A stretch of DNA of 58,206 nucleotides from Bacteroidales bacterium. GTDB lineage: Bacteria; Bacteroidota; Bacteroidia; Bacteroidales; UBA932. The notes beneath the pieces are model-generated. The model worked only from the letters and a program-made list of their open reading frames with translations, had not been told where the DNA came from and did not search any database. Positions 4,714 through 32,458 of this stretch are shown in pieces. Each line of letters opens with the position of its first letter. Position 1 is the stretch's first letter. Where the stretch lies: contig JAFTDJ010000016.1 of the NCBI GenBank assembly GCA_017454265.1, forward strand, positions 1-58,206, given 5' to 3'. Made by a program: the position numbers and the translations under genes.

Positions 4714-5367
4714 TTACTCTTCGCCCGTGACCCAAACGAGCACGTGCCTGTCGAAGGTGATGTATTGGAGCCTGAGTTCTTCCTCGTAACCGTCTTTATT
4801 GATGAAAGTAGCGTCCAGTTCGCCCTCGGCGCGGGGACGTACCGCCTCTATTTCAATCTGTTCTGCGAAGTCCACCTTGTACTGGGACATTTTCTTGTAC
4901 ACGGCTTCCTTGGCGCACCAGTAGATGGCAAGCTGGGTACGGCGGTCGTCGGCGTCGTCGTCGAGCTCTTCGATTTCTTCTTCCGAAAGGGCCCTCTTCT
5001 CCACGGCGCTGAAGTCACGGTCCAGGGACTCGCAGTCTATGCCCACCTCCTCAACGTCGTTGAGAATCACCGCCACGTATTTGTCGGTGTGGGTGATGCT
5101 GATATTGATGGCGTTGTTCTCGATGTAGGGCTTGCCGTTGTCGTGATGGCTGAGGTAAACCTTTTCTTCGAACATGACGTCCAAAAGCGCCCGCACGGCA
5201 AGCTTCTGCTTGCGGAGGGATTCACTTTTTATGTAAGAAATTTCTTCAAGCTCGTCCGAAGGGATGGACGAAAGGGCGCGAAGCTCAGCTTCGGTCTCTG
5301 TGATTTGCCAGACTCCTATACGCGAGTGATAGTCGTCATCAAGGTCTTTTTGTAGATATAGTGCCAT
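4714..5367 (-). CDS. 4'-phosphopantetheinyl transferase superfamily protein (Sfp type)
   Basis: Moves the phosphopantetheine arm of CoA onto a serine of carrier proteins. 217 residues, two-lobed Sfp/HetI type. Metal-binding motif VGIDCE and the second motif WCAKEAVYKK are both present. An acidic stretch (EEEIEELDDDADD) sits between the lobes. A TTG codon two positions earlier is possible, but the ATG at 5367 is the better start. A TATCTTTG box (5385-5392, minus strand) lies 17 bases upstream. It could be a general AcpS substitute or serve a special carrier such as the one at 29694-30080; that link is speculation. Confidence 0.88.
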   Translation of the reverse strand: MALYLQKDLDDDYHSRIGVWQITETEAELRALSSIPSDELEEISYIKSESLRKQKLAVRALLDVMFEEKVYLSHHDNGKPYIENNAINISITHTDKYVAVILNDVEEVGIDCESLDRDFSAVEKRALSEEEIEELDDDADDRRTQLAIYWCAKEAVYKKMSQYKVDFAEQIEIEAVRPRAEGELDATFINKDGYEEELRLQYITFDRHVLVWVTGEE

Positions 5368-5384
5368 AAACAATTATAACGTGA

Positions 5385-6461: not shown

Positions 6462-7667
6462 CTACTTGCGCAGCCACTTTTCCGGGTCCTGGGGCTGACG
6501 TCCCTTCCAAAGCTGGAAGTGCACCTGCGTATCGTCAAGGCCGGTGGCAACGTGACCGATGACTTGTCCGGTTTTCACCTTGTCACCGGCCTTTACTGCA
6601 ACCGAACCGAGCTTGCAGTAGAAGGTGAAATACTCGCCGTGCTGCACCAGCACGCACTGGTTGTAACCGGGCACGACTACTATTTGTTTCACCACTCCGT
6701 TGAATACAGCCAGCACCGCCGCATCCTTGCCCACGGCTATGCCGACTCCGTTGTTGAACGGCATTTCTAGCTTTGTATAAACAGGATGCGGATTGCGTCC
6801 GAAATGGCTCACCACGCGTCCTTCCGCCGGCCATGGAAGTTTGCCCATATTTGCAGAAAACTGCTCCGACAAGGCATAGTCGACCTTTGTTTTGGTTTTG
6901 CTTCCGCCCGCTTTGCCCTTAGCCTTGTTCCCTGTTCCTTCCATCTCCGCCTGAATGAGACGTTCGATTTCGCGATTCAGGGCCTCTACCTGCTTGCGCT
7001 TGGAGTTCAGCTGCGCCTGATACTGCTTCTTGTCTTTCTGCAGCTGATTCACCAGCAGACGTGACTTGTCCTCCTCTTTACGCAGTTTTGTCACCTCGTA
7101 TGCCCTTTCGTCCCTGAGCACCTTCGCTTGCGCCCGCAGGCTGTCCAGACTCTGTTTCTTCGCCTCCAGCTTTGCCCGTTCCTCTCCGATTCTGCGCCCC
7201 TGTTCGTTCATCTGGGCAGACAGCTGCCGCAGGTAGGAGTAACGGCGCAGGCCCTGGCCTATGTTCTCGCTCGCCAGGATATACATATACCACATCCGCG
7301 AATCGCGGTTTCTGTATGCATTATGCACCAGGCGCCCGTAATAGAAGGTCATGGTGTCGAGCCGCCCCTGTACCGTTTCTATCTCTTTCTTGCAACGGCG
7401 CACGCTGTCGGTGATTGCGGCAAGCTCCTTCTCGCTGTCGTTCAACAACTCCCTGCGGGCATCGGTCTGGGCCCTCAGAAGGCTGAGCTGGGTTGCGGCG
7501 CTGTTGCTTTTGGCCGTAGCCGTCTGCAGCTGCTTTTCCAGTATCCTGATGTCACGCTCCAGACGCGCTTTCTTATCCTTGCTGGACGACAGGCTCTGCG
7601 ACGCCGCCGGGAGGCAGCAGCACAGCAGAAGCACTGCGAGCGTAGTTATGGTACGGAATCTCATCAT
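6462..7667 (-). CDS. EnvC-like murein hydrolase activator (degenerate LytM domain)
   Basis: Periplasmic protein that, by analogy with EnvC/NlpD, would activate an amidase at the division site rather than cut peptidoglycan itself. 401 residues: signal peptide (residues 1-24, ending PAASQS), a long coiled coil rich in Lys, Glu, Gln and Arg to about 260, then a LytM domain. Zinc ligands are missing: NGVGIAV stands where HxxxD is expected and QVHFQLWK replaces HxH. The ATGATGA start overlaps the stop of the TPR gene; an in-frame extension upstream to 7940 would run through that gene and is not credible. Confidence 0.87.
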   Translation of the reverse strand: MMRFRTITTLAVLLLCCCLPAASQSLSSSKDKKARLERDIRILEKQLQTATAKSNSAATQLSLLRAQTDARRELLNDSEKELAAITDSVRRCKKEIETVQGRLDTMTFYYGRLVHNAYRNRDSRMWYMYILASENIGQGLRRYSYLRQLSAQMNEQGRRIGEERAKLEAKKQSLDSLRAQAKVLRDERAYEVTKLRKEEDKSRLLVNQLQKDKKQYQAQLNSKRKQVEALNREIERLIQAEMEGTGNKAKGKAGGSKTKTKVDYALSEQFSANMGKLPWPAEGRVVSHFGRNPHPVYTKLEMPFNNGVGIAVGKDAAVLAVFNGVVKQIVVVPGYNQCVLVQHGEYFTFYCKLGSVAVKAGDKVKTGQVIGHVATGLDDTQVHFQLWKGRQPQDPEKWLRK

Positions 7668-8812
7668 TTGTTCTTGGCTTCCGCAAGGTTTCTGTAATAT
7701 GACGCCAGATCCTTTTCCCCTAGTTTTTCCAGCACTTTGGAGAAGTGCATAAGGATGACGGCGCTGTCTTTGCCGCCGTAGAGCATGGCGTGCTTGAAGT
7801 AAGGTTTGGCTTCTCCCGCCTTTCCGCGCAGGTAAAGTATCCAGCCGTAAGTATCCAGATAGGTCGGGTTGTCCGGTTCCCTGGTCACGGTAATCAGGCT
7901 CATTCTCTCCGCTTTGGCCAGTTTCTTCTTTTCCGTACACAGATACCAGGCATAGTTGTTCAGTACCGGACAGTAACCGGGATCCAGGCGCAGGGCCTGG
8001 TCGTATGTCTTGTATGCCTTGCGGGTCTGCCCTGTCGCATACCAGGAATCACCGATAATGGACAGGCAGTTCACCACGTGAGCCGTGTCGTCCGGAGACA
8101 GGGATATAAGCGTCTCGCACTCTTCTATGACGCGTGGGTAGTTTTCCCTGCTGGCGGCAATCTGCATGCACAGGCTGTGGGCATGCAGGCTGCGCGGCTC
8201 CGCGTCGGCATACGCGCGCACAAGAGTATCTATGTCCGGAAGCAGTGCATTGTAGGTACGGGTGTCGAAATTGCCCAGTACGCTCATCAGGGCCTCATAT
8301 TTGGACTCGTCGTCGGAGTTGCGGTCTTTTACAAGAGACTGAAGGGTGGCAAAATAAGAAGGATAGTCCCGCTTTATCCTGTAGGAAGCTGCGAGCATGG
8401 AAGAGACGTAGAGTTCCGGAAACTTGCCTGGCTTGACAGTCTGCAGTTCCCGTAGAAGTTTTTCCGCCGCCTTGACCTCTCCCGAGTTCAAATAAAGATT
8501 GGCAAGCGTCTCCTTGTACCAGTAATTCGTGCTGTCCAGTTTTACCGCCTCGCCGAAGCGTTCGGCGGCAGCCTTGAAATCTCCGGCCGTATAACGGCAG
8601 AGGCCCTGATAATAACGTATCGCATCGTTTCCCGGGTAAACGGCGGCAAGGGAATCCAGTGCAGCTTCCGCTTCATGGATTCCGCCGCTTTCGAGCAGGG
8701 CCACAGCATCCAGGACAGCATCTTCCACTCCAGTGCTGTCACGCTTTTCCTCCTGGGCATTCAGAAGGATGCAAATCGGCAAAAGAGCGAAGCAGAGCAG
8801 CAGTTTCTTCAT
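7664..8812 (-). CDS. TPR repeat protein with signal peptide
   Basis: 382 residues from the ATG at 8812. A signal peptide (MKKLLLCFALLPICILLNAQ) is followed by tetratricopeptide-type helical pairs, for example AIRYYQGLCRYTAGDFKAAA and the region near NYAWYLCTEKKKLAKAERM. Such proteins act as assembly or docking factors in the periplasm or at the outer membrane; the partner is unknown. Coupled to the EnvC-like gene by a 4-base overlap, so a role in envelope or division complexes is likely. Upstream in-frame ATGs (to 8971) lie beyond the promoter and are rejected. Confidence 0.85.
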   Translation of the reverse strand: MKKLLLCFALLPICILLNAQEEKRDSTGVEDAVLDAVALLESGGIHEAEAALDSLAAVYPGNDAIRYYQGLCRYTAGDFKAAAERFGEAVKLDSTNYWYKETLANLYLNSGEVKAAEKLLRELQTVKPGKFPELYVSSMLAASYRIKRDYPSYFATLQSLVKDRNSDDESKYEALMSVLGNFDTRTYNALLPDIDTLVRAYADAEPRSLHAHSLCMQIAASRENYPRVIEECETLISLSPDDTAHVVNCLSIIGDSWYATGQTRKAYKTYDQALRLDPGYCPVLNNYAWYLCTEKKKLAKAERMSLITVTREPDNPTYLDTYGWILYLRGKAGEAKPYFKHAMLYGGKDSAVILMHFSKVLEKLGEKDLASYYRNLAEAKNK

Positions 8813-22380: not shown

Positions 22381-23378
22381 TATAGATGCTCAACCTCAGG
22401 GCTAAGCGTCACGCCGAAGCGCTCGTGTACGGTGGCTACTATCCGTCGCTCAAGTTCCAGTACATCGTCGGGCGCGGCATCGCCACTCGCGTTCACAATC
22501 ACCAGCGGCTGCTTTTCGTACACTGCCGCGCCTCCGGCCTTTTCGCCCTTCAGGCCGCACTGGTCTATCAGCCAGGCGGCAGGCACTTTCACCATACCCC
22601 CCGGAAGGATAAAGTGGGGGACGGTTACACCAGGAACCGAATCGCTGATCCACGCAAGGTCAATGGCACTTATCACCGGGTTCTTGAAAAACGAGCCGGC
22701 GCTTCCGGTATCTTCCGGATCAGGCAGTTTCCCACGTCGTATGGCGATTACCGCATCCCTCACCGACTGGGGGCTGGAGGCATCCACGCCGGAGAGACCC
22801 TTGTATTCCAGCCGGGGTCTTGCCTTACGGGAAACGCGCAGAAGAACGGACGTTACAACATATCTGCCGGCAGCTTCTTTGAACATAGACTCGCGATATC
22901 CATATCCGCACTCCGCGACGGTGAATTTACAGCGCCTGCGCTCCTGCAGGTCGAAGCAGCTCACGCCTGAGACAATGTCCTTGAACTCTACTCCGTAGGC
23001 TCCTATATTCTGCACGGCCGCCGCTCCCACTTCTCCCGGAATAAGGGAGAGGTTTTCTGCGCCCCAAAGGGAGTGGGAGCAAAGTTCGGCCACCAGATTG
23101 TCCCAACGCACACCCCCTCCGGCTATCACCGGCACTTCGTCCAAGCCCATATCCACATACTTGATATGGCGTATGGCCGAGTGCAGTATAGTTCCGGGGA
23201 AATCTTTGGTAAACAGCAGGTTGGAGCCTTCTCCTATATGCCTGACCGGGCGGGGCAGCGAGTCGAAATCCAGGCCGGCAAGCTCTTCCACGTTTTCATA
23301 TTCAATATAGCAGGCGCAGCGCACCTTCATTCGGAAGGTGTTATGGGCGCTCAAATCATAATCGTACATCAGCTTCAT
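22380..23378 (-). CDS. murB: UDP-N-acetylenolpyruvoylglucosamine reductase
   Basis: Reduces UDP-GlcNAc-enolpyruvate to UDP-MurNAc with NADPH, second step of peptidoglycan precursor synthesis. 332 residues. FAD-binding GEGSNLLFT, IPGEVGAAAVQNIGAYG and the catalytic serine region GSAGSFFKNPV are present, with the long C-terminal domain of type I MurB. The start is set at 23378, before YDYDLSAHNTFRMK; longer open frames upstream cross the divergent promoter. murA, the preceding pathway step, is at 28269. Confidence 0.93.
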   Translation of the reverse strand: MKLMYDYDLSAHNTFRMKVRCACYIEYENVEELAGLDFDSLPRPVRHIGEGSNLLFTKDFPGTILHSAIRHIKYVDMGLDEVPVIAGGGVRWDNLVAELCSHSLWGAENLSLIPGEVGAAAVQNIGAYGVEFKDIVSGVSCFDLQERRRCKFTVAECGYGYRESMFKEAAGRYVVTSVLLRVSRKARPRLEYKGLSGVDASSPQSVRDAVIAIRRGKLPDPEDTGSAGSFFKNPVISAIDLAWISDSVPGVTVPHFILPGGMVKVPAAWLIDQCGLKGEKAGGAAVYEKQPLVIVNASGDAAPDDVLELERRIVATVHERFGVTLSPEVEHL

Positions 23379-23383
23379 CGACA

Positions 23384-23410
23384 CAAAGATAAAAAAAATA
23401 CATATCTTTG
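23384..23410. promoter_or_regulatory. Divergent promoter pair, mirrored -7 boxes
   Basis: CAAAGATA (23384-23391, read as TATCTTTG on the minus strand for murB) and TATCTTTG (23403-23410, plus strand for the S51/ATP-grasp gene) form an inverted repeat separated by 11 A-rich bases. They end 5 and 7 bases before the respective ATGs. Neither has a clear -33 TTTG. Confidence 0.6.
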
Positions 23411-23417
23411 CGCTCCG

Positions 23418-25358
23418 ATGACGCTGATACTTACAGGCAGTCCCACCCGCTACGGGGAAGACAGGTTTACAGAAGACAACGGCTTTCTGGCTACCGTGAA
23501 AGCGGAGCTCGCCGCCGCCGTATCCCGGCGCCACCCGTCCTCCGCCCATGCGATGACACTCCTTGTCAGCGCCGCTCCCGACGACGAGAAATTCACCGAC
23601 AGCGTAATGGAAGGCATGAGCCGCTGCATCCGCAACTCCGGAATACGCCTCTCCGGCATCACCATGCTCGACCGCAGAAACTCCTCGCAGGTGCAGGCGC
23701 TTGTGCAGCAAGCCGACTGGATCATCCTTTGCGGCGGACACGTTCCTACCCAGAACAAGTTCATTAACGACATTGGCCTCAAGGATTTGCTAAAAGGCTT
23801 CGACGGGCTTGCAATGGGATGCAGCGCCGGCTCCATGAACTGCGCCGACGTAGTTTACTCTCACCCCGAGATGCCCGGAGAAGCGGCAGACCCGTCTTAC
23901 AGGCGCTGGCTCCGGGGCCTCGGCCTTACACAGATACAAATTATTCCTCACTATTATCAAGTGCGGGGCATGAAGCTGGACGGGCGCAGGCTCTTCGAGG
24001 ACGTGCTGTTCCTGGACAGCTGGAGGCACACTTTCTACACCTTCCCCGACGGTGGTTACATACTTTGCAAAGACGGCCGGCAGACACTGCACGGTACCGC
24101 CTGGGTTATTTCCAACGGCGCAATGCGCCAGATATCGTCTGAAAATAAAGTGTATACTTTTATGAACGCAGTTTTTATTTCCCCCCATTTTCCTCAGACC
24201 TACAGTCATTTCTGCGCGGGCCTGAAGGCTGACGGAGTCAACGTGCTCGGCATTGCCGACGCCCCATACGGAGAGCTTTCACAGGAGCTTCGCAGTTCGC
24301 TGACCGAGTATTATCAGGTGCGCAATCTCGAAGACTACGACGAAGTTTACCGGGCTGTGGCGTGGTTTGCCCATAAATACGGACGCATAGACTGGATTGA
24401 GTCCAACAACGAATACTGGCTGGAGCAGGACGCCCGCCTGCGCACCGACTTCAATGTCTGTTCCGGTATCAAATCCGACCGCATCTCCTCCATAAAAGAG
24501 AAGTCGGAGATGAAAAAATTCTATGCCGCAGGCAATATTCCCACTGCACGGCAGATAAAGGCCGCTGAAGGTCTCAAGGCTGTTCTCGCATTCACCAAAA
24601 AGACCGGCTATCCCATAATTGCCAAGCCGGACAACGGAGTGGGCGCCAGCGGGACTTTCAAGTTAAACTCCGACAAGGAACTTAAATCCTGGTTCGAGGA
24701 CCACGCAAACAACTACGAGGCCTTTGTTGTGGAGGAGTTCATTACCGGCCTCCTGGTGAGTTACGATGCCATCTTCAACTCTATGATGGAACCGATATTC
24801 GAGAACAACAGCGTATTCCCCACGCCGATCATGAACATAGTCAACGAGAATCTGGACAGCTGCTACTGGACTAATAAGACAGTGCCCTCAAAACTTGCGG
24901 CAATCGGACGGCGAACAGTAAAGGCGTTCGGTATCAAGAGCCGTTTCGTACATCTGGAGTTCTTCCAGCTCGACCGCGACCGCGAAGGACTTGGCAAGAA
25001 AGGCGACTACGTGGGTCTGGAGGTAAATATGCGCCCGCCGGGAGGTTTCACCCCGGACATGATGAACTTCGCCCACAGCACCGACGTCTTTCAGATCTGG
25101 GCCGATATGGTAGCTTTTGACGAGCGCCGCAAACAGGAAGGCGAACAGTTCTACTGCGCTTACGCCAGCCGGCGCGACTCCCACCGCTACAAGCGTTCCC
25201 ACCAGGAGGTGCTCGCACGCTACGCTGCCGACCTGTGCATGTGCGACCGCATGCCGGACGCACTCGCCGACGCGCTGGGAAATCAGGTTTATATAGCACG
25301 CTTCCGCACGCAGAAAGAAATCGAGCCCTTCTTCAGATTTGTCTGCGAGCAGGCTTGA
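23418..25358 (+). CDS. Fusion of S51-type peptidase and ATP-grasp ligase
   Basis: 646 residues. Residues 1-248 are a class I glutamine amidotransferase-like fold of the S51 (dipeptidase E/cyanophycinase) type: LCGGHVPTQNKFINDIG and nucleophile elbow GCSAGSMNCA (Ser136), then IIPHYY. Residues 249-646 start with MNAVFISPHFPQTYSHFC and form an ATP-grasp domain: YPIIAKPDNGVGASGT, FVVEEFITG and VGLEVNMRPPGG. ATP-grasp enzymes join carboxylates to amines; S51 enzymes cut Asp-containing peptides. One protein would therefore make and break, or make and trim, a small peptide-like compound. Substrate unknown. An internal ATG at 24162 could allow the ligase alone. Confidence 0.85.
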   Translation: MTLILTGSPTRYGEDRFTEDNGFLATVKAELAAAVSRRHPSSAHAMTLLVSAAPDDEKFTDSVMEGMSRCIRNSGIRLSGITMLDRRNSSQVQALVQQADWIILCGGHVPTQNKFINDIGLKDLLKGFDGLAMGCSAGSMNCADVVYSHPEMPGEAADPSYRRWLRGLGLTQIQIIPHYYQVRGMKLDGRRLFEDVLFLDSWRHTFYTFPDGGYILCKDGRQTLHGTAWVISNGAMRQISSENKVYTFMNAVFISPHFPQTYSHFCAGLKADGVNVLGIADAPYGELSQELRSSLTEYYQVRNLEDYDEVYRAVAWFAHKYGRIDWIESNNEYWLEQDARLRTDFNVCSGIKSDRISSIKEKSEMKKFYAAGNIPTARQIKAAEGLKAVLAFTKKTGYPIIAKPDNGVGASGTFKLNSDKELKSWFEDHANNYEAFVVEEFITGLLVSYDAIFNSMMEPIFENNSVFPTPIMNIVNENLDSCYWTNKTVPSKLAAIGRRTVKAFGIKSRFVHLEFFQLDRDREGLGKKGDYVGLEVNMRPPGGFTPDMMNFAHSTDVFQIWADMVAFDERRKQEGEQFYCAYASRRDSHRYKRSHQEVLARYAADLCMCDRMPDALADALGNQVYIARFRTQKEIEPFFRFVCEQA

Positions 25359-27346: not shown

Positions 27347-28201
27347 ATGAAATTCTTTTTTATCTCCACCTCCCATCTGGAGGAAAACATCTGGTTCAAA
27401 GATGACGAAGACTTCAAAACCGGAATGAACTATGTTGCAGTGGCCTCTTTCCTCTGCGGCGTGCGTGTATTGTCTTTTATTCTAATGTCCAACCATGTAC
27501 ATTTTCTCTTGGAATGCACAGAATCCGAAGCTGGAGCATTTATCAACAAGTATAAGAAACTCTACAGCTATTATTACCGGACAAAGTACGGAACCAGGCA
27601 ATTACTAAGGCGTAACAACGCGGATATACAGGAGATAGGCCTTACGCCTGAATCCTTGGAGAAGGTCATCGCATATATACTTATGAACTGCGTTGCCGCA
27701 AGGATATGTCTGCATATTTCCGGATACAAATGGGGCACATGCAATACATTTTTTAACCTTAACAGGCCAAAGAGTATTCCGCTTTCCAGACTGTCAGTCC
27801 GAAAAAAGCGGGCAATGCTGAAGAGTCGCATCGAATTGCCTGGCAACTGGATTCTTTCGGAAGACGGCTACGTACTGCCGGAGTCTTATGTCTGCGTGGA
27901 TTTCGTCGAGACGTTGTTCGGCAGCCCGGCCAGGATGAATTATTTCCTGAATACATCCTCAAAAGCCAAGAATGCAAGACTTAGCAGCGTACCTTCTTTC
28001 AAAGACCAGAACATAAGTGCCGCTATGCTGGATATTTGCAGGAGTATCTTCCGGAAAAACGGCCCTGAGCAACTAACAAGGGAAGAGAAGTGTGAACTGC
28101 TGAGGCAGCTGAGTCGCCGGTTTGGAGCAGACCTGAACCAACTGTGCCGTGTCTCCGGAATTCCATATCCTGAGGCGGCCAAGATGCTTGATGAGTATTA
28201 A
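27347..28201 (+). CDS. REP-associated tyrosine transposase (RAYT), IS200-like
   Basis: 284 residues. The Y1-transposase domain has the HUH motif in LMSNHVHFLLE (H50, H52) and a tyrosine-rich helix (INKYKKLYSYYYRTKYG) that should supply the nucleophile. The C-terminal helical part (LLRQLSRRFGADLNQLCRV) resembles a DNA-binding helix bundle. Single-stranded DNA nicking and joining at REP hairpins is the family role. It is flanked by palindromes at 27201-27287 and a half copy at 28213-28226, so gene and repeats form a REPtron-like unit. A TATATTTG box at 27303-27310 is a possible promoter. Confidence 0.85.
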   Translation: MKFFFISTSHLEENIWFKDDEDFKTGMNYVAVASFLCGVRVLSFILMSNHVHFLLECTESEAGAFINKYKKLYSYYYRTKYGTRQLLRRNNADIQEIGLTPESLEKVIAYILMNCVAARICLHISGYKWGTCNTFFNLNRPKSIPLSRLSVRKKRAMLKSRIELPGNWILSEDGYVLPESYVCVDFVETLFGSPARMNYFLNTSSKAKNARLSSVPSFKDQNISAAMLDICRSIFRKNGPEQLTREEKCELLRQLSRRFGADLNQLCRVSGIPYPEAAKMLDEY

Positions 28202-29693: not shown

Positions 29694-30080
29694 ATGAAAA
29701 TTCATTATCTGCCTGTTGCAGCTCTGTTGGCTATTTCGGCACTTACAAACCAAGAATTAAAGGCCGAATCTATTCTCAATCATAATCAAATAAGAACAGA
29801 AAGCCTCAGCTATCTTTATGATAATTACGACTTAGATCAAGTGAAGGCAATCGTCAAGTATCTTCTGTCGGATATATATCACATTCCTTACTCGTATATT
29901 ACGGATGAGTCTTATTTGATGAATGATCTCGGTCTTGATTCTCTTGATATGCTGGACTTTACAAATACATGCTTCGAGTTTTTTAATATAAATACTGACC
30001 CTGATGACGTCCTTAGCACTCCCGATCAATACACTGTATATAATTTCTCTCAAATGATATTAAACCAGAATCCGTCTTAG
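29694..30080 (+). CDS. Acyl carrier protein-like domain with signal peptide
   Basis: 128 residues. The N-terminus MKIHYLPVAALLAISALTNQ looks like a signal peptide, with a possible cut after ELKA (residue 24). Residues 47-125 match an acyl carrier protein: helix I (LDQVKAIVKYLLSDIYHI), attachment motif NDLGLDSLDMLDF with Ser83 as phosphopantetheine site, and an acidic C-terminal part. Carrier proteins act in the cytoplasm, so an exported one is unusual. Codons are AT-rich compared with neighbours. The receptor gene follows after 14 bases. Function unknown; it could carry a lipid or peptide to the outer membrane. Confidence 0.75.
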   Translation: MKIHYLPVAALLAISALTNQELKAESILNHNQIRTESLSYLYDNYDLDQVKAIVKYLLSDIYHIPYSYITDESYLMNDLGLDSLDMLDFTNTCFEFFNINTDPDDVLSTPDQYTVYNFSQMILNQNPS

Positions 30081-30094
30081 AACACTTGGCTGTA

Positions 30095-32458
30095 ATGAAA
30101 CGGGGCATTTTTCTGCTGGCTGTGACCGCTACTATTTCCGCACTCCTCACCTGGAGTGCGGCTGCGCAGTCAGTCAGCACAGAAGAAGACAAGGTGCGTC
30201 TATCCGGCAAAATCATCGAGGCCGGACCTGAGACTTCGCTACCGTTATGCAAGATCACAGTATTCTCCTCTGATGGAAAGATTGTCACCAATGCCATTAC
30301 CCTTGAGGATGGTTCATTTCAGGTTTCTCTCAAAAAGGGGAAGTATGAAGTCTTAATCGAGAATTTGGGCTATAAATCCACCAAAATACCAGTTGTAATC
30401 GGCGGCTCGGATTTAACTCTGCGTGATATAGTTCTTGAAATAGGGGAAGAACTTGACGCTGCATCTGTAGATGCCACTCCTATATTAACCCGAACAGGCA
30501 CGAGAATAACATACGATGTTTCAAAAGATCCCGATGCGGCCAAAATCAGCATGACAGAAATGGCATCCAAGATTCCCAACCTTCAGCAAGAGGCCAGGCG
30601 CGGACGCCTTGAATTTGAGTTTAAGCCTATCAGCAAGATTCTAATAAACGAGGAAGAAAACGGACTTATCAATGCAAGCAGGCAATACCCAATGGAATTC
30701 ATCAAGGCCAATCACATGAAGACCATAGAAATAGTCCTTCCTGGCGACCCGGAATACAACAACTCCGAACCTATTATGCTGATAACTCTTGCCAAAAAGC
30801 TTCCATATGGTTTTGCCGGCCAGATCCAGACAAGTTCAGACTCCAAAAACAGTCACAACCCTGCCGTTGATGTAGTCGCCAACACCCCGCTTATTGGCGT
30901 AGGAGCCGGGTACAGTTATTCTTTTGCCGCCCCCCCCGCGCTGACCAACGAAACTATCCGGCAGATGGATAACATAACGGTGGAAAATTACTCCACTTCA
31001 TCTCAAAGATCAAACGGCCACATTTTCAGCACAAATGTATTCCATTCTTTTGATAATGACAAGATCAACATAAAAGCTAAATTGTCCGGAAACTTTTCAG
31101 ATGCACTCAGCTTAAGTGAATCAGGAACACATGTTCTTGATTCCGGAGGAGAACTGTTAGAAAGCAACCTTACCTCTGCCGTCGGCCATACTACCACACC
31201 TTTCCTGTTAAACGGAGCACTGTCAATGTCCGGTCAATTTGGTAAAGAGCTGCATGGATTGATTAAAAGACTGAAAAACGAATGGCGTGCTGAATATGCC
31301 TTTCTTCAAAACCAGGCTGAAACAACCACCGATTATTCCAGCAATACTTCTGACTACACAAACAATTCAAGTACAGAGCACCGGGCAAATTTTTACCTGA
31401 CTATGAGAGAACTCCTTCTCAGCCCGTTCAAAACAGATTTTAGGCTGCATGGCGGGCACTACAACAGGCATTACGCCAGTCGTTCCGAGTCCTTTTTCAG
31501 GCCCCGTGACATGGATTATAATCAGCAGGTCAGTTTTCTCGAGACCATGTTATTGAACTATTTTTTTAAAAACAAACTCTCAATTGTAATCAGGCTTAAA
31601 GGTGAATATGTCGCCAATTCCGGGTCTGTTGACTGGCATGAGTTCAATTTCATTCCTGGGGTGAGCGGTAGTTGGCGGCTTAAAAGGGGCTCTTTGGGGC
31701 TGTCTTATCACCAATCAGTCAGTCGTCCATCTATAAATCAGCTGAATCCTTACATTGACCGCAGGAATCCCTACTATCTTGTCACAGGCAACCCCGAACT
31801 TAAGGGGGCTGTAACAAACAGTGTTTCTTTGAAATACTCTGTCATGCCGGCAAACGTTAAATGGATACAAGGAATAAATGCAGGTGTTTCCTGGTCGGGC
31901 AGTAATAATTCAATTTCACACATAGTTACTGCAGACAGTGATGGAACGGCAATCAGCACTTATGCTAATATAGGGAGCAGTAACAGCCTCACAGTTAATA
32001 CCACAGCAATGCTGATGCCCGCGCGGAAACTTAGCATGATGATAATGGCTTCTTACACAAGGACATGGGTTATGCTGCCTGGAAATAAGTTAAACACATT
32101 CGACTCTCCAAAAGTCTCAGCTGGTTTTAACTGGAGTCCAGAATGGTTTCAATTGAACGGCAATTTCGTCCTGCAGCCATCCATCAGCTCAGTTCAATCG
32201 GCCAAACTTGTTTTAGAGCCACTTGGGGAAATATCCATTTCCCGATACTTTAAGAAGCCCCATATTGGCATTGCTATCATCGTAACTGATGTTTTCCACA
32301 CAGGAGGAAAGAGGGAAAGTGTATTAATTGGCGACAACTTCACCCAATTCAACTATACAGAGAGAATGGGGCGCACGTTCAGACTCAATATATACTGGCG
32401 CTTCGGACATTTCCAATCGGTAGAGCGTGTTGATGTCAATGCTTACGACATGAATTAA
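30095..32458 (+). CDS. TonB-dependent receptor-like outer-membrane barrel protein
   Basis: 787 residues from the ATG at 30095 (a TTG at 30086 is less likely). Signal peptide ending SAAAQS; carboxypeptidase-regulatory-like beta domain at about 33-115 (VRLSGKIIEAGPETSLPLCK); a plug-like segment (TRTGTRITYDVSKDPDAAKI, then MEFIKANHMKTIEIVLPGDP); then a large barrel of the OMP_b-brl_3 type. No classical TonB box is obvious. Second gene of a two-gene AT-rich unit with the exported carrier protein, so the two probably act together. Overlaps the convergent dapA by 4 bases. Confidence 0.82.
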   Translation: MKRGIFLLAVTATISALLTWSAAAQSVSTEEDKVRLSGKIIEAGPETSLPLCKITVFSSDGKIVTNAITLEDGSFQVSLKKGKYEVLIENLGYKSTKIPVVIGGSDLTLRDIVLEIGEELDAASVDATPILTRTGTRITYDVSKDPDAAKISMTEMASKIPNLQQEARRGRLEFEFKPISKILINEEENGLINASRQYPMEFIKANHMKTIEIVLPGDPEYNNSEPIMLITLAKKLPYGFAGQIQTSSDSKNSHNPAVDVVANTPLIGVGAGYSYSFAAPPALTNETIRQMDNITVENYSTSSQRSNGHIFSTNVFHSFDNDKINIKAKLSGNFSDALSLSESGTHVLDSGGELLESNLTSAVGHTTTPFLLNGALSMSGQFGKELHGLIKRLKNEWRAEYAFLQNQAETTTDYSSNTSDYTNNSSTEHRANFYLTMRELLLSPFKTDFRLHGGHYNRHYASRSESFFRPRDMDYNQQVSFLETMLLNYFFKNKLSIVIRLKGEYVANSGSVDWHEFNFIPGVSGSWRLKRGSLGLSYHQSVSRPSINQLNPYIDRRNPYYLVTGNPELKGAVTNSVSLKYSVMPANVKWIQGINAGVSWSGSNNSISHIVTADSDGTAISTYANIGSSNSLTVNTTAMLMPARKLSMMIMASYTRTWVMLPGNKLNTFDSPKVSAGFNWSPEWFQLNGNFVLQPSISSVQSAKLVLEPLGEISISRYFKKPHIGIAIIVTDVFHTGGKRESVLIGDNFTQFNYTERMGRTFRLNIYWRFGHFQSVERVDVNAYDMN

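What the first reader, a model, noticed from the sequence alone, without database searches (positions are those of the whole stretch)
29694..32458. Exported acyl-carrier-like protein paired with an outer-membrane receptor
The 128-residue protein has both a signal peptide and a full carrier domain with the attachment serine (NDLGLDSLDMLDF, Ser83). Carrier proteins and their phosphopantetheinyl transferases are cytoplasmic, so an exported carrier has no standard role. It sits 14 bases before a large TonB-receptor-like barrel, and the pair is AT-richer than the flanking murA and dapA, suggesting a transferred two-gene module. It may carry a thioester-linked or pantetheine-linked ligand to the receptor, or be a carrier fold reused as a periplasmic adaptor.
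Basis: partly seen in the sequence, partly recalled or inferred. Interest (0 to 1): 0.82.

Follow-up and report, generated by a model that had tools for sequence, protein, structure and literature searches.

The report
Exported carrier protein beside outer-membrane barrel
A gut-type bacterium has a gene for an acyl-carrier-type protein that appears to be sent out of the cytoplasm, just ahead of an outer-membrane barrel gene, which is unexpected because such carriers are known as cytoplasmic parts of fatty-acid and polyketide synthesis.

Summary
The 128-residue protein at 29694-30080 is a divergent acyl-carrier homologue (five-row profile against solved ACPs, best E 5.5e-12) that keeps the attachment serine. 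It begins with a Sec-type signal sequence (judged by features) and lies 14 bases before a PF14905 outer-membrane barrel gene. It is not a one-off: the same genome holds a second intact pair (carrier 36%, barrel 51% identical) and two wrecked copies. Other genomes of the genus (inferred Candidatus Cryptobacteroides) hold further pairs, including a 416-aa lipoprotein-like protein with two carrier domains before a barrel that hardly aligns to this one. The five carriers measured are 33-38% GC. Ser83 is the only Ser/Thr invariant in four standalone carriers. None was seen outside the genus in an order sample (list cut). Recent transfer is not supported: another species has the module among the same neighbours. 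How it works is unproven. My best guess: phosphopantetheine is added before Sec export (shown possible for ACP fusions in E. coli) and the carrier presents a ligand to the barrel. The main rival is an unmodified adaptor. The exported D-S-L site also fits the Bacteroidota O-glycosylation motif.

The parts
29694..30080 (+). carrier gene, 128 aa: signal sequence (residues 1-24), linker, acyl-carrier domain (about 46-122)
29694..29765 (+). signal-sequence codons, cleavage proposed after Ala24 (LKA|ES); feature-based, no predictor run
29925..29963 (+). residues 78-90, DLGLDSLDMLDFT, with attachment-type Ser83 (codon 29940-29942)
30095..32458 (+). outer-membrane barrel gene (ATG start), signal peptide ending AAA|Q by eye, CarboxypepD_reg-like stretch (below its cut-off), PF14905 barrel
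27347..28201 (+). RAYT-type (Y1_Tnp, weak match) transposase gene near the module; a relative lies directly upstream of the module in G218. A neighbour, not shown to belong to the module
4714..5373 (-). phosphopantetheinyl transferase (PF01648), the only one found in the 76%-complete genome; the enzyme that would have to modify the carrier

Best explanation
The pair is an operon for an exported acyl-carrier-type protein and a dedicated outer-membrane barrel. Shown by homology and conservation: the carrier is ACP-derived, keeps an export-type N-terminus and the attachment serine, and recurs directly before PF14905 barrels. Inferred: it is made as a Sec precursor, receives phosphopantetheine on Ser83 from the cell's PPTase before or during export, and acts in the periplasm. 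There its thiol arm holds a ligand (acyl or other thioester or disulfide partner) and passes it to, or takes it from, the periplasmic face of the barrel. The partnership is well supported by gene order, export by sequence features only. The modified-arm step is a guess, favoured over an unmodified adaptor because Ser83 is the only Ser/Thr that never changes in the standalone carriers.
For: Profile match to solved ACPs. Signal-type N-terminus in 4 of 85 distinct carriers in the loci then held, all four directly before PF14905 barrels. Second intact pair in the same genome, another in G324 and a 416-aa two-domain form in G347 before a barrel that hardly aligns to the window's. Eight of 88 mature columns are invariant in four standalone carriers (window, C54, G324, and G218 with X at its stops), among them D78 L79 G80 D82 S83; Ser83 is the only one of 16 window Ser/Thr columns that is invariant. 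Identity to the window copy falls in the same order for both genes in three cases: G218 (carrier 53%, barrel 60%), paralogue (36, 51), G324 (22, 34). NG86 dN 0.36, dS 1.39 for window against G218 carrier, stop codons left out (dS saturated for the paralogue). Holo-ACP can pass Sec in E. coli (PMC3418276). A PPTase gene is present.
Against: No modification, location or ligand was measured. The carrier is often broken while the barrel frame stays open: G218 (two stops), C60 minus strand, G336 and G184 (only the last 30-40 residues left), so the barrel can outlive it; 12 of 17 testable barrels have no carrier seen before them. In G347 the first domain has Glu in place of Ser, and its first domain is 33% identical to the window carrier while its barrel hardly aligns, so the pair does not always evolve as a unit. 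PF00550 alone is borderline for the window protein. Export and pantetheinylation compete: in E. coli only a fraction was modified without extra AcpS (PMC3418276). No loading or unloading enzyme is in the pair.
Confidence: 0.38

Rival explanations
1. Carrier fold reused as an unmodified periplasmic adaptor: the small helical protein binds the barrel's periplasmic face (as a lid, gate or assembly partner) with no prosthetic arm. Ser83 stays as the N-cap of helix II.
For: In E. coli only a fraction of exported ACP fusions was modified without extra AcpS (PMC3418276), so an exported carrier may leave unmodified. Ser is Glu in G347 domain 1, while that protein keeps its place before a barrel. In window against paralogue the motif and signal are conserved and the rest is near 26%.
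Against: Ser83 is the one invariant Ser/Thr of 16, and the G347 protein keeps an intact DS site in its last domain.
Confidence: 0.28
2. The exported carrier is O-glycosylated at Ser83: D-S-L, D-S-V and D-S-M fit the Bacteroidota sequon (D)(S/T)(A/I/L/V/M/T), so after export the old pantetheine site becomes a glycan site on a periplasmic partner of the barrel.
For: Sequon seen in the start of the abstract of PMC8550257; passages of PMC12871550 say that about half of noncytoplasmic proteins hold it and that it is generally nearly fully substituted. The four standalone carriers fit it at Ser83.
Against: Ordinary ACPs have D-S-L by descent (14 of 14 ordinary rows of A5 have D-S), so the match is no evidence by itself. 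The glycosylation genes were not looked for in this genome.
Confidence: 0.12
3. The carrier-type protein is cargo: the barrel, with a CarboxypepD_reg-like N-terminus as in Oar, exports it to the cell surface or medium.
For: A TonB-dependent transporter (Oar) is needed to secrete the protease PopC in Myxococcus, and Oar-like architecture dominates in Bacteroidetes (PMC6434023, start of abstract, passages). Small secreted protein and barrel side by side; divergent, sporadic, AT-rich carriers.
Against: Barrel kept where the carrier is lost. The G347 form looks like a lipoprotein, which would tether it. No plug or TonB box shown.
Confidence: 0.12
4. A relic or selfish, fast-turning gene pair with no current carrier role; carriers are decaying passengers of a barrel family.
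For: Two wrecked copies in the same genome and broken carriers in G218, G336 and G184, perhaps in RUG619 (L111). Low GC.
Against: Two intact carriers in one genome at 36% identity with conserved motif and signal; dN 0.36 against dS 1.39, window against G218.
Confidence: 0.1

Closest known systems
Acyl carrier protein family (PF00550; AcpP and relatives)
   Same: Profile match to solved ACPs over positions 47-120, DLGxDS motif with attachment serine, acidic residues after it mostly kept (by eye)
   Different: N-terminal export-type signal, no fatty-acid or polyketide genes directly beside it, directly before an outer-membrane barrel; window carrier 19-32% identical to the 14 ordinary ACP rows of A5
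Outer-membrane barrel family PF14905 with CarboxypepD_reg-like N-terminus (Oar-like or TonB-dependent-like proteins of Bacteroidota)
   Same: PF14905 E 2e-30, over its cut-off; CarboxypepD_reg-like E 6e-7, 30.2 bits, below its cut-off of 32.3
   Different: Plug domain not detected in the window protein; no relative among solved structures; partnered with a carrier
SusC-SusD and BtuB-BtuG pairs (barrel plus exported partner)
   Same: Exported partner protein encoded next to its barrel; the G347 form looks like a lipoprotein
   Different: Partner is of the ACP family; the window form has no lipobox Cys. Comparison recalled; for BtuB-BtuG only an abstract start was seen (PMC10404256)
IacP, a dedicated ACP associated with the Salmonella SPI-1 type III secretion system
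   Same: A dedicated carrier genetically associated with an export system
   Different: IacP serves acylation of the translocon (title) and is not described as exported (recalled); only title and start of abstract seen (PMC5279801)

Membership tests
Acyl carrier protein (PF00550) | sequence match to the family over the whole domain | tested here: met
   borderline alone (20.4 of 20.8 bits); clear for relatives and for the five-row profile against solved ACPs (5.5e-12)
Acyl carrier protein (PF00550) | attachment serine in a D-S motif | tested here: met
   Ser83 in 4 of 4 standalone carriers, one of them broken; Glu in G347 domain 1, Ser in its last domain
Acyl carrier protein (PF00550) | four-helix fold | not testable with these tools
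   structure prediction switched off; supported only by sequence profile
Acyl carrier protein (PF00550) | phosphopantetheine on that serine | not testable with these tools
   needs mass spectrometry
Acyl carrier protein (PF00550) | cytoplasmic, with fatty-acid or polyketide partners | tested here: not met
   export-type N-terminus by features and neighbours murA, barrel, dapA; location itself not measured
PF14905 outer-membrane barrel | profile match over the curated cut-off | tested here: met
   106.5 bits against 27
TonB-dependent receptor | plug domain in the barrel | tested here: inconclusive
   no PF07715 hit in residues about 101-302 of the window barrel even at E 10; weak 0.11 hit in the G347 barrel. 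A diverged plug is not excluded
TonB-dependent receptor | TonB box and TonB dependence | not testable with these tools
   experiment needed
SusD/BtuG-type barrel partner | surface lipoprotein with lipobox Cys | tested here: not met
   no Cys in the first 29 residues of the window or C54 carrier (C54 has one at 30, after the proposed cut); TASC in G347
Bacteroidota O-glycoprotein | D(S/T)(A/I/L/V/M/T) site on an exported protein | tested here: met
   DSL, DSV, DSL, DSM at Ser83; present in ordinary ACPs by descent, so weak; glycan not testable here

The most novel reading that the evidence does not exclude
Acyl-carrier chemistry outside the cytoplasm: a holo carrier exported through Sec works in the periplasm as a swinging-arm shuttle that loads or unloads an outer-membrane barrel, and the pair has duplicated and diversified in Candidatus Cryptobacteroides.
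Probability: 0.3. Interest if true: 0.92.

Novelty: new variant of a known kind. Interest (0 to 1): 0.74.

Why it matters
Carrier proteins are known as cytoplasmic parts (established knowledge, recalled). A family that is exported, keeps its attachment serine and is tied to outer-membrane barrels would mean either that thioester or pantetheine chemistry is used in the periplasm, or that the ACP fold was recruited as a barrel partner. Both are testable by one mass spectrum and one point mutant. Searches of the held papers found no natural exported carrier: 0 papers for six phrases, and none by title and abstract start among the listed 20 of 127, 15 of 20 and 1 of 1. The library lacks most subscription journals.

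Tried and rejected
Recent horizontal transfer: low GC confirmed, but G218 has the module among the same neighbours. A plasmid search for the barrel (E 1e-10) gave 1 weak hit in 72,556 records. Viral contigs gave none for carrier or barrel.

Ordinary ACP with a misread start: rejected, because a similar N-terminus is seen in six copies or relatives and is kept with synonymous changes, and no Met lies between residues 2 and 75 of the window protein.

Five of the nine N-terminal segments flagged as hydrophobic were dropped as not signal peptides: four are helix I of ordinary ACPs (L129, L042, L015, L121) and one (L159) reads through the leader of an ordinary ACP that starts at MSDVAAK (by eye). 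That leaves 4 of 85.

Wider search: 393 genomes of the order (332 match, those looked at being ordinary ACPs) showed no carrier of this kind outside the own genome in the part of the list that was printed; best outside hit 2.4e-14, positions 29-120. The 29 loci newly fetched for it (L121-L149) showed no signal-type N-terminus. The 416-aa protein was found whole in 1 of 400 genus genomes (74 more had partial, ACP-type matches). Match lists were cut and genus and order were sampled, so members may be missed.

Carrier before barrels: one search lists 20 places in 17 of 400 genomes (own genome included; E cut 1e-40, two candidates scored a genome, so the C60 and G324:C79 barrels are not among them). 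Three had too little upstream DNA (G147, G002, G155). Of the other 17, a carrier or a piece of one stands before 5 (C54, C63, G218, G336, G184) and none was seen before 12 within 800 bases. The barrel profile misses the G347 barrel, so 'no barrel' for the other carriers holds only for barrels like the window's within about 1,500 bases.

Solved relatives of the barrel: none at E 0.01, only chance-level hits up to E 10. Sigma-70 and terminator scan: 10 and 4 sites against 6.2 and 2.7 in shuffles, not used. RAYT as mover of the module: 8 matches in the genome, one on a contig with a module; not pursued. The window-C54 and window-G324 carrier comparisons are too far apart for a useful dN/dS.

Full report
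What is there. The window is contig C63 of a 1.94-Mb, 76%-complete genome. The carrier ORF (29694-30080, 128 aa) and the barrel ORF (ATG 30095 to 32458) lie 14 bases apart on the + strand, after murA and facing dapA, dapB and thrA on the other strand. Gene names not backed by a family search (aspS, dapB, thrA, gpmI, dapF, rpsT) are by eye.

Is it a carrier? PF00550 scores 20.4 bits alone, just under its cut-off. Two related carriers score 24.5 and 46.3 bits, and the 416-aa form 33.9. A profile from five relatives matches 118 distinct PDB sequences at E up to 0.01; the 60 shown are nearly all acyl carrier proteins, best 5.5e-12 over positions 47-120.

Is it exported? No signal-peptide predictor was available. 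The N-terminus has the usual parts: basic start, about 12 hydrophobic residues, polar region, Ala before the proposed cut (LKA|ES, IKA|ET). The short hydrophobic stretch fits a cleaved signal better than a membrane anchor (inference). The Bacteroidota Q-rule (Gln after the cut; PMC5837995, abstract and passages seen) is met by the barrel (AAA|QSV) and not by the carriers, which is a small point against standard cleavage. In window against paralogue, residues 1-25 are 14 of 25 identical, the motif 77-89 is 8 of 13, and the rest is 21 of 80. Nine of 13 degenerate conserved codons in the signal differ between the two, so the signal is kept as protein, not by recent copying. Among 85 distinct carriers in the loci then held, 4 have such an N-terminus: window, C54, G324, G347 (five flagged cases dropped, reasons in Tried and rejected).

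Is the pair real? The own genome holds a second intact pair on C54, carrier 121 aa and barrel 802 aa, between gpmI and dapF. On C60 lie two wrecks. On the minus strand is an open barrel frame with only the last 35 or so residues of a carrier before it. On the plus strand a carrier start runs into a barrel 3' end, as a deletion would leave it. tRNA-Pro, rpsT and tRNA-Glu lie between them. G218 has a carrier with two in-frame stops before an open barrel frame. G324 has barrel, carrier (120 aa), barrel. G347 has a 416-aa protein whose start resembles a lipoprotein signal (ISTASC), with a carrier domain at 48-116 (Glu for Ser), a weak remnant near 300 and a carrier domain at about 342-396 with Ser, 15 bases before a 921-aa PF14905 barrel that hardly aligns to the window's. 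Pieces of carrier C-termini stand before barrels in G336 and G184 and perhaps in RUG619 (L111, weak). The barrel is commoner than the carrier: 17 of 400 genus genomes at E 1e-40, own included, and a carrier or piece before 5 of 17 testable places.

Spread and history. In 393 genomes of the order no such carrier was seen outside the own genome (list cut). In 400 genus genomes, G000, G218, G324 and G347 gave the only listed matches that begin at the carrier's first residue (list cut). G218 carries the module with the same neighbours in another order (aspS, RAYT, dapA-dapB-thrA, murA, S51/ATP-grasp), so the locus is probably inherited from their common ancestor. The five carriers measured are AT-rich (33.3-38.0% GC) whatever their neighbours; the G347 barrel is 56.1%. 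The cause is unknown. Identity of carrier and barrel to the window falls in the same order over G218, C54 and G324, as expected if the two genes evolve as a unit. G347 breaks that order: its first carrier domain is 33% identical but its barrel hardly aligns, so a carrier of this kind has been joined to more than one sort of barrel.

The serine. In four standalone carriers (one, G218, broken) 8 of 88 mature columns are invariant: E36, L58, D78, L79, G80, D82, S83, F89. Of 16 window Ser/Thr columns only S83 is invariant. This favours a use for the serine; it does not say which. Two modifications are possible. Phosphopantetheine before export has a direct precedent: ACP fused to YebF or MBP was modified in the E. 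coli cytosol and exported, a fraction of it as holo-ACP (PMC3418276, abstract and passages seen). The window itself holds the only PPTase found in the genome (4714-5373). O-glycosylation after export is the other: D-S-(L/V/M) fits the Bacteroidota sequon (PMC8550257, start of abstract; PMC12871550, passages). The match is inherited from ACPs and therefore weak evidence.

Mechanism. Shown: ACP-family sequence, conserved signal-type N-terminus, conserved serine, operon-like tie to PF14905 barrels in several unlike forms. Inferred: Sec export, cleavage, partnership with the barrel at the protein level. Guessed: a pantetheine arm that carries a ligand. Against the guess stand the recurrent loss of carriers beside surviving barrels and the Ser-to-Glu domain in G347. 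I put the holo-shuttle at 0.38, adaptor without arm at 0.28, glycosylated partner at 0.12, cargo of an Oar-like exporter at 0.12, relic at 0.10.

Comparison. It is a member of the ACP family by sequence and fails the family's usual cellular setting. The barrel is a PF14905 member; TonB dependence is unproven (no plug found). It works like SusC-SusD or BtuB-BtuG pairs in that an exported partner is encoded beside a barrel (recalled), and is not a member of either. I found no report of a natural exported carrier in the held papers, which lack most subscription journals.

Noticed in passing
L044 2413-3109 (+) and 1590-1710 (-) (G000:C60): Two broken module copies in opposite orientation flank tRNA-Pro, rpsT and tRNA-Glu. 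One keeps the carrier start, the other the carrier end, as a rearrangement through the carrier might leave.
   Followed up: partly
L082, L089, L096, L111 (upstream of barrels): Carrier remnants before open barrel frames begin at nearly the same point (after the motif, near FGI/FGL) and keep roughly 100-130 bases before the barrel, as if that stretch held something the barrel needs (promoter or leader). L111 is weak.
   Followed up: partly
window 27347-28201; L120 5954-6811: RAYT-type Y1 transposase gene near the module in both species; 8 matches in the own genome, itself included.
   Followed up: partly
L044 1703-1734: Hairpin with perfect 8-base arms CCGCCAAA...TTTGGCGG next to the truncated carrier; no exact copy elsewhere in the 178 loci then held and none in the window with up to 3 mismatches.
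   Followed up: partly
L043 12274-17733 (-): Two serpin-like genes interleaved with streptopain-like secreted protease genes (named by eye) next to the second module.
   Followed up: no
L043 within 6806-7804: The dapF-like frame (named by eye) holds a tandem run translating as VIPTPSVIPTPS..., possibly REP-like repeats inside a coding frame.
   Followed up: no
window 23073-25358: One frame with a peptidase S51 match and weak ATP-grasp matches; a similar gene, by eye, lies beside the module in G218 (L120 10019-12019).
   Followed up: no
window 29694-30080 and the carriers in L043, L112, L113, L120: The five carrier genes measured are 33-38% GC, even beside a 56% GC barrel gene (G347). Unexplained.
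   Followed up: partly
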